Shown piece after piece: positions 10,651-24,769 of a stretch of 64,000 nucleotides of DNA. The DNA comes from Halogeometricum limi. GTDB lineage: Archaea; Halobacteriota; Halobacteria; Halobacteriales; Haloferacaceae. Both the position numbers and the translations under genes were made by a program. The number at the start of each line of letters is the position of its first letter. Positions within the stretch are counted from its first letter, which is position 1. Below the pieces are notes generated by a model, which did not search any database, had not been told where the DNA came from, and saw nothing but the letters and a program-made list of their open reading frames with translations. Location of the stretch: positions 62,001-126,000 of the forward strand of contig NZ_FOYS01000003.1 of the NCBI RefSeq assembly GCF_900115785.1, in the 5' to 3' direction.

Positions 10651-11682
10651 CTAAAAGTCCTCGGGGACGTGTCGGTCGACCCACGAGGCGAATCGGAGGT
10701 CCTCTTTCGCCCGGGACTCGCCGTTCCAGCCCTCGGGGACGTACTGGCCGAACTGCGGCGACTCCGAGAGGGCGTTCGGGAAGAACAACTGCGACCCGTT
10801 GGCGGTGTACTCGTCGATTATCGCCTGTCCCTCGGGGCCGGTGAGAAAGCCGACGTACGCCATCGCAAGCGAGTAGTTCACGTCCTCGTACGTCGCCGGG
10901 TTGACCGGGATGACGCCGTAGGGGTTCTTCAGGATGGTCGGGCCGTCTTTGAGCGGCCCCTGAACGTGAATCTGTAGGCCGACGTTGTCTTTCGTCGCCA
11001 GATAGGTTCCCCTGTCGGCGAGGGTGTACGCGCCGGACTGGTCGGCTTGCACCAGCGTGTCGCCCATCCCCTTGCCTATCTCGCGGTACCACCTACCCGA
11101 CGGGTCGACGCCGGCCGCCTCCCATATCTTCAACTCCTTCTTGTTCGTCCCGGAGTCGTCGCCGCGGGAGACGAACGTGGACTCCGTCTCGGCGATGGTG
11201 GCGAACGCCTCCGTCGCCGAGGACAGTCCGCCGACTCCCGCGGGGTCGTCCTCGGGTCCGACGACGACGAAGTCGTTGAACATCACGTCGCGGCGGTTGA
11301 CGCCGAAGCCATCTTTCAGAAACTCGTCTTCCGCCCCGCGGGCGTGGACGAGGATGATATCGGCGTCGCCGTTCCGCGCCGTCTCGATGGCCGCGCCCGT
11401 CCCCTGCGGAATCGTCTTGACCGTCGCACCGAACTGCTCTTCGAAGACGGGGTTGATGGCGTCTAACAGTCCCGTGTCGTACGTGCTCGTCGTCGTCGCC
11501 AGGGTCAGCGTCGCGTCGCCCGACTGTTGCGACCCCGCGGACTCCTGCGTGGCGCTCTCGTCCGTCGCCGCCTCGTTACTCTCCGTCGCCGAACGCTCGC
11601 CGGCGTCGCCCGAACACCCTGCGAGTGCGACGAGACTCCCCGCACCGGCCGCCTGCAGGAACCGTCGCCGTTGTATCGTCAT
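10651..11682 (-). CDS. Tungstate-type ABC transporter substrate-binding lipoprotein (TupA-like)
   Basis: A 343-residue secreted protein. The N-terminus [23 protein letters not shown] is a Tat signal ending in a lipobox (cut before Cys, which anchors it by lipid), then an acidic Ser/Thr/Gln linker to about residue 57. The mature part begins [20 protein letters not shown] and has [24 protein letters not shown], the anion-binding pattern of TupA tungstate proteins. It could also bind molybdate. First gene of the operon; ATG 11682 follows a TATA box. Nitrate reductase in this window needs a molybdopterin cofactor, so the transporter may supply it. Confidence 0.88.
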
Positions 11683-11705
11683 GGAAACATCGATGGCTGT
11701 CGTCG

Positions 11706-11717
11706 AAATAAAACTAT
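11706..11717 (-). promoter_or_regulatory. TATA box of the tungstate-type transporter operon
   Basis: On the minus strand ATAGTTTTATTT lies 24-35 bases before ATG 11682, a strong leaderless haloarchaeal promoter. A ModE-type operator would be expected near it; I see no obvious palindrome. Confidence 0.65.
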
Positions 11718-11830
11718 GGACGCGACGTAACCGTCGGTCGTTACGCGGGTCGGAAGACGCTCTCTGGTGGGGCCGAGGGGGCGTCGCTCGAACCGTCACA
11801 CTTCTTTCGCCGCCGCGTCTCTCGACGCTC

Positions 11831-11938
11831 ATGGAGACGTGGGCGACCCTGTTCGACCGCGCGGCGTCGTACGACGTGGACGAGGCGACGATTCGCGAGA
11901 CGCTCCGCGCACACCGAGAGGAAAGCGGCGATGACTGA
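11831..11938 (+). CDS. 35-residue acidic protein preceding a PIN-like gene
   Basis: [35 protein letters not shown] in frame (given here only by its features): a short, Asp/Glu-rich protein with a helix around ATLFDRAA and a second helix [14 protein letters not shown]. Its last 8 bases overlap the start of the PIN-like gene, so the two are translationally coupled. Size and order resemble an antitoxin before a toxin, but no DNA-binding motif is seen. Too short to be identified by itself; the coupled position and good codon bias support it. Confidence 0.55.
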
Positions 11939-12401
11939 CCCGAGTCCGGCGCGCGTCGTCGCCGACGCGGACGTCCTCGCCGCGGACCTGTTCGTCGACG
12001 GCGACGCCCGCGCGGCGCTCGACCACCTCCGCGCGCACTCGTGGACGACGCTCCTCGCCAGCGACGCGCTGTTAGACGACGCCGAGACGCTGATAGCCGA
12101 CGTAGGCGACGCCTCCCTCGCGGCGGACTGGCGCGCCCGCGTCGACGACTGGCGCGAACCGGTCGACCACCCCGAGGACGACCATCCCGCCCTCGCGTCG
12201 GCCTATCGCGGCGGCGCGATGCACGTTCTCTCGTACGACGACCGACTCACCTCCGCCCGCGCCGCCGCCGCCCTCGGCGGCCGGTTTCCGGTGAGCGTCA
12301 GGGAACCGAAGGCGTTCGCGACGCTGTTCGACGCGGCGAGTCTCCACGCGGAAGTCGTCGGCGGCGAGTACGGGGGTCCGGACAGCGACCCGCGAGGGTG
12401 A
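11931..12401 (+). CDS. PIN-like domain protein, putative nuclease
   Basis: A 156-residue protein with the alternating acidic pattern of PIN folds: [13 protein letters not shown] (residues 8-20) as the first strand with its Asp, [17 protein letters not shown] in the middle, and [25 protein letters not shown] near residues 84-108 as the third acidic cluster and the final strand. PIN proteins cleave RNA with a Mg-dependent acidic site. The upstream 35-residue gene overlaps it by 8 bases, as in VapBC pairs, but the partner does not look like a known VapB. Toxin role is inference. Confidence 0.65.
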
Positions 12402-12424
12402 GTCTCGAACGCGCCGTCTCGTGC

Positions 12425-12461
12425 GGTTCCAGACGCTCACTCCGTGCGCTTCGCTTACTCC
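12425..12461 (+). repeat. 37-bp direct repeat, copy 1
   Basis: Identical to 12534-12570; starts GGTTCCAGACGCTCACTCC and ends CGCTTCGCTTACTCC. The spacer of 72 bases is itself rich in CTTCGCTC-type motifs, a style common in haloarchaeal intergenic DNA. Confidence 0.85.
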
Positions 12462-12533
12462 TGTTCGCTCGCCCCGCCCGCTTTCACCTCGCTTCGCTCG
12501 GTGAACCTCCGTCGGACGCTTCGCGACCGACGA

Positions 12534-12570
12534 GGTTCCAGACGCTCACTCCGTGCGCTTCGCTTACTCC
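12534..12570 (+). repeat. 37-bp direct repeat, copy 2, overlapping the ITPase gene end
   Basis: Same 37 bases as copy 1. Its last 7 bases cover the stop codon and the final two codons of the ITPase gene, suggesting the duplication arose from the gene end. Confidence 0.85.
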
Positions 12571-13202
12571 GTTCGCGTCTGGAACCACTCCCCAAACTTC
12601 GCCAACGCCCGCCCCCGGTGGGAAATCGCGTTCTTCTCCTCGGAATCCATCTCCGCGAACGTCGTCCCCTCGTGTTCGAAGATGGGGTCGTAACCGAACC
12701 CGCCATCACCCCGCGGCGGGACGAGACGGCCGCGGACGCGCCCCTCGAACAGTTTGACCGGGAGCGCTCGCGTCTCCGAGGCGTCCTGTTCGGCCCCCCG
12801 CGCCGCGGCGGCCGTCCGGTCGTCTCGGTCCACCGGGTCCGGACTGGCCTCGAACCCCTCGCCGTCGCAGTACGCGAGGACGCATCGGAACGACGCCCGG
12901 CGCGGTTCGTCCAGTTCGCCTTCCGCGAGGCGGTACACCGTCTCGATTCCGAGCGTGTCCTCCGCGTACGACGAGTACGGTCCCGGGAAGCCGTCGAAGC
13001 CGTCGATGAACAGTCCCGCGTCGTCGACGAGGACCGGTTCGTCGGCGTAGCGGTACGCCTCCCGCGCGCCGTGCGCGGCGATTGTTCCGAGGTCCGACGC
13101 CTGCACCTCGGTGTAGTCGTAGTCCAGTTGCTCAACGTCGCCCTGCAAGTACTGAAGCGCCTCCGCTACTTTCCCGGGGTTCGTCGTGACGTATCGAAGC
13201 AT
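12564..13202 (-). CDS. rdgB: XTP/dITP pyrophosphatase (RdgB/HAM1 family)
   Basis: A 212-residue house-cleaning enzyme that hydrolyses ITP, dITP and XTP to monophosphates and keeps deaminated purines out of nucleic acids. The substrate motif TTNPGKVAEA is at residues 6-15, the metal site at VLVDDAGLFIDGFDGFPGPYSS, and the base-binding end at GGFGYDPIFEHEG and EKNAISHRGRALAKF. An insertion of about 25 residues (roughly 122-147, DPVDRDDRTAAAARGAEQD and on) interrupts the usual core; it is Ala/Asp/Arg rich and probably a surface loop. The 3' end lies in a 37-bp direct repeat. Confidence 0.93.
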   Translation of the reverse strand: MLRYVTTNPGKVAEALQYLQGDVEQLDYDYTEVQASDLGTIAAHGAREAYRYADEPVLVDDAGLFIDGFDGFPGPYSSYAEDTLGIETVYRLAEGELDEPRRASFRCVLAYCDGEGFEASPDPVDRDDRTAAAARGAEQDASETRALPVKLFEGRVRGRLVPPRGDGGFGYDPIFEHEGTTFAEMDSEEKNAISHRGRALAKFGEWFQTRTE

Positions 13203-22040: not shown

Positions 22041-22148
22041 CGTCACCGAGTAGGGGACGGACGGTCCTTAAGCGTAGTCGAAGGCGAAGGCGCACCGTCC
22101 CGACCGCGCCGCTGCCGCAAAATGGGTGTTCTCGGTCTGTACGCTCCG

Positions 22149-22712
22149 TCAGCGCTTGATCTCGATCTTGACTTTCGTCCCGGACTTGACCTCGATGTCG
22201 ACGTCGCCGTCGCCGTCTATCTCGATGTCGAGTTCGTCGCCGTCGTACTCCAAGTCGATGTCGTCGGCGTCGTCCACGTCGATGTCGAAGTCGTCGGACT
22301 CGGCCTCGAATCGGCCGTCCTTGAACTCGATTTCGACGTCGTCGGCGTCCTCGATGTCGACCTCGAAGCCGTCGGCCTCTATCTCGACGCGGCCGTCGCG
22401 GAACTCGACTTCGACGTCGTCGTCCTCGTCGGTCTCGAACTCGAAGTTACGGGACTCGATCTCGATGTTGCCGTCGCGGAACTCGACTTCGACGTCGTCG
22501 TCGTCGGACTCGAACTCGAAGCCGTTGGCCTCGATCTCGACCCGGCCGTCGTCGACGTCGATCTCCACGTCGTCGTCGCGGTCCGTCTCGAACTCGAACC
22601 CGTCGCCCGAGATTTCGATGTCGGAGGCTGCCACCGCTGTTCCGGTCGCCCCGGCTATCGCGACGGATAGCACCACGAGGACGACCAGCGCGGATCTCAT
22701 CTGCTTCCACAT
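22149..22712 (-). CDS. Secreted acidic repeat protein, probable beta-repeat surface protein
   Basis: A 187-residue protein with a Sec-type signal (MRSALVVLVVLSVAIAGATG, likely cleaved after AVAA) and a mature part made of about five to six degenerate repeats of 25-26 residues. Each has an F/V-E-F/V-E-like strand, an Asp run, VEIEF or VEVEF, then RDGRVEIEA. Over half the residues are Asp or Glu, with alternating hydrophobic positions, the pattern of a beta-solenoid or stacked beta-hairpin. No cell-wall anchor, TM tail or PGF-CTERM is seen, so it may be released or held by calcium bridges. Function unknown. Convergent with nothing; long non-coding stretch upstream. Confidence 0.8.
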   Translation of the reverse strand: MWKQMRSALVVLVVLSVAIAGATGTAVAASDIEISGDGFEFETDRDDDVEIDVDDGRVEIEANGFEFESDDDDVEVEFRDGNIEIESRNFEFETDEDDDVEVEFRDGRVEIEADGFEVDIEDADDVEIEFKDGRFEAESDDFDIDVDDADDIDLEYDGDELDIEIDGDGDVDIEVKSGTKVKIEIKR

Positions 22713-23190
22713 GTTCTTTCACCTTCTGTACCCGTACGGCCACGACTCGGTCGGCGTCCGACCGCGTTCGCCGTATCAAACATGGTAGGTCTGCTACCGG
22801 TACTGATCTCGGCTTCACTGTGGGGCGACCGCACGATACTAGGTAGACTCGGCGCGCGGATGAGCAACGGACCTACGGGGCGCACGCACGAGGGCGTCAA
22901 CGGAGTAGGTCCGTAGTTTATGCCGCACGGGCCACAGCGCCCCGATTTCTCGGCTCGAAGACAGTTCGTCGGCGAGTCGACCCGGGTGACCTGATTCGAC
23001 CGTGCGGCGGCCGCGTTCGACAGATGCGGGGTCGGTAGACGCGTCTACGCGCCGTGGACGCGGACGACGGACAACGACGGGCGACGGCGGACGACGGACA
23101 ACGACGGGCGACGGCGGACGACGGACGACGGACGACGACGACCGGAACGGCGTCTCCTCGCGGCGTCGTCTCGTCCGCCCGCCGGACCGG
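22713..23190. other. Long non-coding stretch between the acidic repeat protein and the DMT transporter
   Basis: Nearly 480 bases with no convincing gene. An AT-richer patch around 22915-22925 (GTAGTTTATGCC) could be a promoter without a clear gene. The right part (23060-23140) is a tandem repeat of 27-base units. The DMT gene ends here, so this is the downstream side of that gene and the upstream side of the acidic repeat gene. Confidence 0.5.
23060..23140 (+). repeat. 27-bp tandem repeat, three units (third degenerate)
   Basis: Units at 23060-23086 and 23087-23113 are identical (GCGGACGACGGACAACGACG then GGCGACG); the third, 23114-23140, differs in the second half by GGACGACG runs. Direct, head-to-tail, no spacers. 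Confidence 0.85.
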
Positions 23191-24117
23191 TCAATCGCCC
23201 GCCGTTTCCGCCGTCTCCGTCGCTTCGCTCACCAGGTCGGCGATGGCGCGTCGCTTGAGGACGAGAAACCCGGCGAAAACGACGACGAACCCCGCGAGCG
23301 TCGAGAGCGTCAGCGTCTCGTCCAAGACGGTGACGCCGACGACGGTGGCGACGACGGGGACGAGGTAGGCGACGAGCGACGTCTCCAACGCCCCCTGCGT
23401 CTCCAGCAGGTGAAAGTAGATGAAGAAGGCCAGGGCGGTGGCGAAGACGCCGAGGTACGCGACTGCCGCGCCCGTCCGCACCGTCGCCGGGAGCGCGAAC
23501 GGTTCGCCGAGTACCGCGCTGGCGACGTGCAGGATGACCCCGCCGACGAGCATCGACCACCCCGAGAGCGCCGCCTTGTCGAGCGTCGGCCGCGCCCGTT
23601 GGACGAGGACGCCGCCCAACGCGACGCCGGACACCTGCAGGAGGATGACGAGACGGCCGACGAGGCGGTCCGCCAGCAGGTTCGCCGGGTCCGGTCGGAC
23701 GATGAGGACGACGCCGAGGAAGCCGAGGGCGATACCGACCGCTCCGACGGGCGAGACGCGTTCTTCGGGGAGGAGCACCAGCGCCCACAGCGAGGTGGCG
23801 ATGGGGACGAGACTCTGCATGATGGCGGCGACACCGCTGGGGACCGTCTGCTGGCCGACGAACAGGAAGGCGTTCATCCCGACGAGGAAGACGCCGCCCG
23901 CGAGGATGGCCGCGAGGTTAGACCGACCGGTCGGCCGCCACGAGGCACCGCTGAGGAGGGCGAACGCGAGGAGGAACGCCGCGCCGGTGTCGTAGCGGAA
24001 CGCCGCGAACAGCACCGGGTCGAGCGTCTCCAGGCCGACGGAGATGGCGAGAAACGAGAGTCCCCAGAGCGTGGCGAGGAGGGCGAACGTACCGACGGTC
24101 GCGAGACGACGGTTCAC
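23191..24117 (-). CDS. EamA/DMT-family transporter
   Basis: A 308-residue membrane protein with ten predicted segments arranged as two EamA repeats: the first from ATVGTFALLATLWGLSFLAI, the second from LILLQVSGVALGGVLVQRAR, each ending in a GFLGVVLIV or GFVVVFAGFLVL type helix. The drug/metabolite transporter superfamily exports or exchanges small metabolites, amino acids or drugs; the substrate here cannot be told. Start GTG 24117. Single gene. Confidence 0.9.
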   Translation of the reverse strand: MNRRLATVGTFALLATLWGLSFLAISVGLETLDPVLFAAFRYDTGAAFLLAFALLSGASWRPTGRSNLAAILAGGVFLVGMNAFLFVGQQTVPSGVAAIMQSLVPIATSLWALVLLPEERVSPVGAVGIALGFLGVVLIVRPDPANLLADRLVGRLVILLQVSGVALGGVLVQRARPTLDKAALSGWSMLVGGVILHVASAVLGEPFALPATVRTGAAVAYLGVFATALAFFIYFHLLETQGALETSLVAYLVPVVATVVGVTVLDETLTLSTLAGFVVVFAGFLVLKRRAIADLVSEATETAETAGD

Positions 24118-24207
24118 GTTTCAGTACGGGGTGGTCGAACGGAAAGGAGTCGCGATTGCGGCGGTTCCGTCTGTCGTACCGCATGCGAACGAACGCCAGC
24201 CGTTCGC

Positions 24208-24714
24208 TCATGTGTCGTAGACGCCGACGTGACGAACGACCACCGGAAAGGTACACTCGTGCTTCTGCACCGTTCCGCCGTCGTTCTCGTGCCGGAGCGT
24301 TACGTCCACTGTGGCGGGCGCGCCTTCGACGACGCCGTCGAAGTCGGCGGACGGCCCGCGTTGGTACGCGCCGTGTCGGCCGTAGTACGTCTCGATGCCG
24401 ACGAGGACTGCGGGTTCCGTGACCGCATCGAGGGCCGCCGAGTCGCGAACGCTCTGCACCCGCGCACCCCGTTCGACGCGTTCCCCGACCGCGTTCGCCG
24501 CGACGTCGACGCACTCTCCGTCGGTCAGCTCGGACGACTCGACGGACCGCGTCACCGTGAGGTGCTCTGCCGTCCCTCGTGTCGGAGCAGGAGTCGCCGT
24601 CCCGTACTCTGCGTGCTTCGGTCCGGCCGTCACGCGCCGGGCAGCGCACCCGCCGAGCAGCGTCGTCCCGAGGCCACCGACGCTCGCGAGAAACGCACGT
24701 CTCGTGGAGGGCAT
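24208..24714 (-). CDS. Tat lipoprotein, function unknown
   Basis: A 168-residue protein starting MPSTRRAFLASVGGLGTTLLGGC, a twin-arginine signal with lipobox cysteine. The mature part has paired strands (EHLTVTRSVESSELTDGECVDV, AVLVGIETYYGRHGAY, TVDVTLRHENDGGTVQKHECTFPVVV) with two further cysteines that could bond. No known domain is recognised. It lies between the DMT transporter and the AAA ATPase, all on the minus strand but with gaps of 90 and 55 bases, so co-transcription is uncertain. Confidence 0.65.
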   Translation of the reverse strand: MPSTRRAFLASVGGLGTTLLGGCAARRVTAGPKHAEYGTATPAPTRGTAEHLTVTRSVESSELTDGECVDVAANAVGERVERGARVQSVRDSAALDAVTEPAVLVGIETYYGRHGAYQRGPSADFDGVVEGAPATVDVTLRHENDGGTVQKHECTFPVVVRHVGVYDT

Positions 24715-24769
24715 CGTCCGCAGTCATCCGCGGACTGGTAAGTACTTTGTCGAAAAAGGGCCGTCCGGC

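What the first reader, a model, noticed from the sequence alone, without database searches (positions are those of the whole stretch)
22149..22712. Secreted ultra-acidic protein of 25-26 residue beta repeats
After a Sec signal the protein is made of five to six repeats of the kind (F-E-F-E) (Asp run) V-E-V-E-F-R-D-G-R-V-E-I-E-A. The alternating pattern suggests a beta-solenoid or stacked hairpins with an Asp/Glu face, likely to bind Ca, Mg or basic partners. No family is recognised and no anchor is visible.
Basis: partly seen in the sequence, partly recalled or inferred. Interest (0 to 1): 0.6.

Follow-up and report, generated by a model that had tools for sequence, protein, structure and literature searches.

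The report
Secreted acidic β-meander repeat protein
A salt-loving archaeon secretes an extremely acidic protein built of repeated short β-strands; it belongs to a patchy, uncharacterised family predicted to form long open β-sheets with one greasy and one acidic face, and most gene clusters of its closest relatives lie beside a sensor-type regulator and a secreted protease.

Summary
The gene lies on the minus strand (22712→22149; 187 aa): a Sec-type signal, then five 25-26-residue units plus two partial ones, 45% Asp+Glu when mature, no anchor. Lag-26 self-similarity far exceeds shuffles. It is a solitary member of an unnamed haloarchaeal family. Three larger paralogues (4-strand, 34-residue repeats) and a membrane-anchored one lie on another contig, and relatives occur in 9 of 392 genomes of the order. 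Kinship survives shuffles that keep the hydrophobic/acidic pattern. Repeat length is not conserved (16, 26, 32-36, 52), but the strand period of about 8.5 residues is. A relative is predicted confidently (mature part mostly pLDDT 88-96) as about 28 antiparallel strands, closest to open single-layer meanders (SPAG17-like, CPAP, OspA, MORN, ApoB belt), not a solenoid. Hydrophobic side chains fall on one face, acids on the other. Clusters sit beside BAT-type regulators (6 of 7) and secreted S8 proteases (5 of 7). In four sister species the window gene's site is empty: a 2.7-kb insert carries it. Best reading: an extracellular amphipathic β-tape that assembles through its hydrophobic face and shows an acidic, cation- and water-binding face. 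Assembly and function are inferred.

The parts
22149..22712 (-). CDS, secreted acidic β-repeat protein, 187 aa
   Evidence: paralogues; window protein matches profile A2, which was built without it, at 84.6 bits, E 8.6e-24
22626..22712 (-). Sec-type signal peptide, about residues 1-29 (cleavage near AVAA|S)
   Evidence: sequence reading; helix 2-20 in the model; no signal-peptide predictor was available
22212..22598 (-). five 25-26-residue units (residues 39-167), three predicted strands each
22152..22211 (-). last partial unit (residues 168-187) ending in a Lys/Arg-rich strand TKVKIEIKR, unlike the acidic rest
   Evidence: sequence
22085..24769 (.). insert of about 2.7 kb absent from four sister species; carries this gene, an EamA transporter (23191-24117 -) and a 168-aa lipoprotein-like gene (24208-24714 -)
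   Evidence: no shared repeats of 9 bp or more found between the two end regions

Best explanation
The gene encodes a secreted repeat protein of a haloarchaeal family. About 18 short antiparallel strands (five units of three strands plus ends) form an open, twisted beta-meander. Alternation puts V/I/F/L on one face and D/E on the other. Outside the cell, in brine, the hydrophobic faces stack (dimers or larger assemblies; in this member the basic last strand could dock on an acidic edge), giving a beta-tape or matrix whose outer face holds cations and water. The larger cluster-borne relatives would be the main matrix parts, under BAT-type PAS/GAF/HTH_10 regulators, processed or recycled by the neighbouring secreted S8 protease; a paralogue with an N-terminal TM and a Ser/Thr-rich linker would tether it to the cell. 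Shown: gene, repeats, kinship, gene neighbours, insert. Predicted: fold and faces. Inferred: assembly, matrix role, regulation, processing.
For: Repeats far above shuffles. Three paralogues score 60.6-66.5 bits against a maximum of 33 for 100 shuffles keeping the hydrophobic/acidic pattern; independent profile match E 8.6e-24. Paralogue pairs dN/dS 0.18-0.50: maintained proteins. Relative's model: mature part mostly pLDDT 88-96, five models 83-86, pTM 0.79; matches to open meanders: SPAG17-like Z 13.5 over 227 residues, CPAP Z 9.0, OspA 7.7, MORN 7.1, ApoB belt 6.0 at rmsd 2.0 over 123. In 22 of 27 predicted hairpins hydrophobics stay on one face (13 of 17 in the window protein); several exceptions follow 3-residue loops, where the DSSP end can shift by one. 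Strand period 8.5-8.7 in both; repeats of 16, 26, 32-36 and 52 residues. BAT gene by 6 of 7 clusters (chance about 2e-5) and S8 by 5 of 7 (about 2e-7). TM-anchored paralogue.
Against: The window protein's own model is weaker (pLDDT 71, pTM 0.53, one of five models above 56) and its PDB matches are poor. No oligomer was modelled and no experiment exists. The window gene itself has no BAT or S8 neighbour among the adjacent genes. A monomeric sheet with one hydrophobic face needs a partner that was not shown. CPAP's sheet has both faces hydrated (PMC3776556), so the analogy is in fold only. Chance figures treat clusters as independent and used spans chosen after seeing them.
Confidence: 0.4

Rival explanations
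1. Homotrimeric spike: three chains intertwine as a triple-stranded β-prism (gp5/VgrG or sarcoglycan manner), hydrophobic faces inside, acids outside, giving a stiff surface fibre.
For: Sub-threshold Pfam matches of paralogues to trimeric β-helix families (PF21930 26.4 vs cut-off 27, Sarcoglycan_1, DUF2345); residues 158-265 of the relative's model match a phage baseplate chain (Z 6.6, rmsd 3.0 over 96); the exposed hydrophobic face asks for a partner; any number of strands per repeat is allowed.
Against: The monomer is predicted with strands at high confidence in all five models; the best PDB matches are meanders; the Pfam matches are below cut-off and the composition is biased.
Confidence: 0.15
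2. Protease partner: the proteins are inhibitors, chaperones or sacrificial/precursor substrates of the co-encoded secreted S8 subtilases, for example precursors cut into active peptides as reported for HFX_0892 and HlyR4.
For: S8 gene beside 5 of 7 clusters against 4-10 per genome; protease-activated precursors exist in Haloferax mediterranei (PMC12893001), which also carries four relatives.
Against: The window copy has no S8 neighbour; the reported precursor acts through N-terminal α-helices (PMC12893001), here all β; two of seven clusters lack S8.
Confidence: 0.15
3. Extracellular cation sponge or shield: monomers bind Ca/Mg or soak up cationic peptides such as halocins; the sheet is only a scaffold for charge.
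For: Net -58 on 158 residues; Asp-rich turns such as DRDDD, EDDD, DADD, and NDGDGD in relatives.
Against: No canonical Ca-site motif seen: no GGxGxD of RTX, no DxDxDG in the window protein; strand alternation and the hydrophobic face are more than charge needs; haloarchaeal proteins are acidic anyway.
Confidence: 0.15
4. Coat for a hydrophobic surface: the hydrophobic face lies on lipid or another nonpolar surface as ApoB's β-belt does, the acidic face makes it soluble in brine.
For: ApoB β-belt match at rmsd 2.0 over 123 residues, Z 6.0; amphipathic faces.
Against: Z 6 is in the range of common arrangements; no lipid context; strands are short (5-6 residues).
Confidence: 0.1
5. Low-complexity acidic disorder: repeats come from DNA slippage of GAC/GTC/GAG codons and the fold is an artefact of prediction.
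For: Biased composition; AF2 likes idealised β repeats; shallow alignments (10 and 17 rows).
Against: dN/dS 0.18-0.50 between paralogues, signal peptides kept, strand spacing kept across divergent members, high confidence in all five models of the relative.
Confidence: 0.05

Closest known systems
CPAP/SAS-4 TCP10 (G-box) domain, PDB 4lzf, 4bxp (eLife 2013, PMC3776556)
   Same: open single-layer antiparallel meander of consecutive strands joined by tight turns; Z 9.0 to the relative's model
   Different: intracellular eukaryotic centriole domain, both faces hydrated; no significant sequence kinship (phmmer E 0.2); here one face hydrophobic, one acidic
Borrelia OspA single-layer sheet
   Same: secreted, free-standing β-sheet, Z 7.7
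   Different: lipoprotein with globular ends (own knowledge); no lipobox here
MORN repeats (PMC7725318)
   Same: row of β-hairpins, extended dimers with overall negative charge, Z about 7
   Different: 23-residue unit with glycine/tryptophan consensus, absent here
ApoB-100 β-belt
   Same: long amphipathic antiparallel sheet, rmsd 2.0 over 123 residues
   Different: lipid particle belt; no sequence kinship tested
RTX Ca-binding β-roll
   Same: repeated strands of about 9 residues with Asp-rich turns, secreted
   Different: parallel solenoid with GGxGxDxUx; motif absent here
Halolysin-activated precursor HFX_0892 (PMC12893001)
   Same: secreted haloarchaeal protein in a possible protease partnership
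   Different: α-helical active part; no sequence comparison made

Membership tests
Haloarchaeal acidic β-meander family (type A, defined here) | Sequence kinship beyond composition and alternation | tested here: met
   60.6-66.5 bits vs shuffle maximum 33; profile match 84.6 bits
Haloarchaeal acidic β-meander family (type A, defined here) | Signal peptide followed by 8-9-residue strand-turn units | tested here: met
Haloarchaeal acidic β-meander family (type A, defined here) | Cluster with BAT regulator and S8 protease (frequent, not universal) | tested here: not met
   window copy is solitary in a 2.7-kb insert; its paralogues meet it
Types B (short acidic) and C (Tat-signal acidic) | Sequence kinship with the window protein above pattern-keeping shuffles | tested here: inconclusive
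   scores of most members within the shuffle range
Open single-layer β-meander (TCP10/OspA-like fold) | Consecutive antiparallel strands in one open sheet | tested here: inconclusive
   predicted for a relative, Z 9.0 and 7.7; window model weaker; coordinates not inspected
TCP10_C (Pfam PF07202) | Profile match | tested here: not met
   11.2 bits vs cut-off 36
β-solenoid | Constant coil length set by the repeat | tested here: not met
   family repeats of 16, 26, 32-36 and 52 residues; a solenoid of the window protein alone is not excluded
RTX β-roll | GGxGxDxUx nonapeptides | tested here: not met
   no GG in the mature sequence
MORN | 23-residue YxGEW-type repeat, Pfam match | tested here: not met
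   no MORN match for the window protein
Glyco_hydro_65C (PF03633) | Domain match over the curated cut-off | tested here: inconclusive
   22.4 vs 22 bits over 32 residues, no stretch significant alone, biased composition; taken as chance

The most novel reading that the evidence does not exclude
A new class of extracellular archaeal polymer: amphipathic open beta-meander tapes of up to about 28 strands or more, stacking by their hydrophobic faces into a polyanionic matrix, under BAT-type sensor control and remodelled by a dedicated secreted subtilase.
Probability: 0.2. Interest if true: 0.75.

Novelty: new variant of a known kind. Interest (0 to 1): 0.5.

Why it matters
Long natural open β-meanders are few; the CPAP authors described theirs as unique to their knowledge (PMC3776556). 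A secreted family with a hydrophobic and an acidic face would be a new way to build surface material in brine and a natural test of β-sheet assembly at high salt. The recurring regulator-protease-repeat neighbourhood gives a testable system; relatives and a BAT-type regulator lie on plasmid pHME505 of Haloferax mediterranei, a species in which gene knockouts have been published (PMC12893001).

Tried and rejected
First genome-contig scan with the window protein: no relatives; plasmids: none for the window protein, one for a paralogue. No viral or phage relatives. Pfam hits of the window protein (DUF2807, FecR, Sarcoglycan and others) below cut-off or local and compositional. Solved-structure sequence search: nothing below E 0.1. 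Apparent hits in G002 and G059 rejected: a 1529-aa surface protein, and no acidic-repeat ORF of that kind listed. Kinship with type B and C proteins not claimed. Repeat-to-repeat dN/dS above 1 within the window gene not interpreted: 25-26 codons each and strong codon bias. Viral fold library gave only weak matches. A transposon origin of the insert was looked for by repeats of 9 bp or more between the ends; none. No paper describing the family was found.

Full report
OBSERVATION. The ORF at 22149-22712 is real and is read from the minus strand. It has a Sec-type signal and five units of 26, 25, 26, 26 and 26 residues with partial units at both ends. Lag-26 self-similarity is 1.56 against at most 0.49 in shuffles; TRF finds the matching 78-bp array. 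The mature part has 71 acidic and 13 basic residues of 158. The last strand, TKVKIEIKR, is basic, unlike the rest.

FAMILY. In the same genome three signal-bearing paralogues of 335, 338 and 403 aa stand on contig C2, with a 465-aa paralogue that has an N-terminal TM and a long Ser/Thr/acidic linker. Type A relatives occur in 9 of 392 genomes of the order. The weaker window query found 3 of 170 in the family, one being Halegenticoccus tardaugens (G062). Named carriers also include Haloarculaceae archaeon H-GB1-1 and plasmid pHME505 of Haloferax mediterranei. A profile search drawn across the phylum found only the own genome and one other of the same order, with only a few first-look candidates scored per genome. 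None in viral contigs or phages.

IS THE KINSHIP REAL? Biased composition makes false kin easy. Shuffles that permute residues only within hydrophobic, acidic and other classes give at most 33 bits to the own three paralogues, against 60.6-66.5 observed; for short type B and Tat-signal type C proteins the scores mostly fall within the shuffles, so I do not claim them. The TM-anchored paralogue (19.6 bits against a shuffle maximum of 25.3) is also not separable by this test; it is assigned by its place in the cluster and its repeat pattern. Profile A2, built without the window protein, finds it at 84.6 bits. Paralogue pairs have dN/dS 0.18-0.50.

REPEAT LENGTH AND FOLD. Relatives show periods of 16, 32-36 and 52; the window protein's 26 is a three-strand unit and the odd one out. 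All are near multiples of 8-9 residues. AlphaFold2 gives a relative (L058:9924-10727, 268 aa) pLDDT 85.8, pTM 0.79 and 28 strands; the window protein gets 71.4 and 0.53 with 18 strands. The relative's nearest solved structures are open β-meanders: a central-apparatus protein (Z 13.5 over 227 residues; my reading is SPAG17-like), CPAP TCP10, OspA, MORN and the ApoB belt. Pairing the DSSP strand ends across each loop keeps hydrophobics on one face in 22 of 27 hairpins, and in 13 of 17 in the window protein. Caveats: shallow alignments, monomer prediction, fondness of AF2 for regular β repeats.

NEIGHBOURHOOD. PAS/GAF-BAT-HTH_10 regulators lie within or beside six of seven type A clusters and also in the Haloferax mediterranei cluster. 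S8 subtilases, all with twin-Arg-like N-termini by eye, lie beside five of seven. With 23-43 BAT and 4-10 S8 matches per genome, chance gives about 2e-5 and 2e-7; these are rough, since spans were set after the fact and genomes are related. HxlR-type regulators (5 loci) and DUF4397 proteins (3 loci) also recur (DUF4397 confirmed by Pfam in one; HxlR named by eye).

ORIGIN OF THE WINDOW COPY. In four sister species an AAA ATPase and an MBL-fold gene are adjacent. In the window genome about 2.7 kb separates them, holding this gene, an EamA transporter without a close orthologue in the sisters (best 44-45%) and a lipoprotein-like gene. A motif upstream of MBL (CTTCGACTACGCTTA, one base different in one sister) is kept in all five. 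So the copy is a gain here or, less simply, repeated loss.

MECHANISM. Committed reading: a secreted amphipathic β-tape, assembling through the hydrophobic face, acidic face out, as matrix or surface material (0.4). Shown: gene, repeats, kinship, neighbourhood, insert. Predicted: fold and faces. Inferred: assembly, cation and water holding, regulation, protease processing. Rivals with similar weight together: trimeric spike, protease partner, cation sponge, lipid coat.

NOVELTY. No Pfam family fits, and no paper found describes it. The fold type is known; a secreted, ultra-acidic, amphipathic version of this length appears new, hence new variant of a known kind.

Noticed in passing
L065:5786-14820 and L021:3754-8335: Tandem arrays (about eight and four copies) of Tat-signal acidic proteins (SKRQYLKYAG...), each array flanked by a TFB-like gene and a BAT-type regulator; kinship to the window protein unproven.
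   Followed up: partly
L020:13768-14280 (-) and L068:4545-5147 (-): Homologous secreted repeat proteins (DENGxLRxRRxxDDDGDE, MORN_2-like) beside type A genes in two genera.
   Followed up: partly
L068:10006-11400, 11587-13131 (+): Haloferax mediterranei type A proteins carry an extra C-terminal, probably helical domain (EVGAFLDDLTRxEIIELGT...).
   Followed up: no
window 23060-23130: 27-bp tandem array (2.6 copies, 97%) inside the 2.7-kb insert, just downstream of the EamA gene.
   Followed up: no
L060:14117-14512, L061:14518-15129, L064:7299-7799: Short secreted acidic proteins (type B) of about 130-200 aa beside type A clusters in three genomes.
   Followed up: partly
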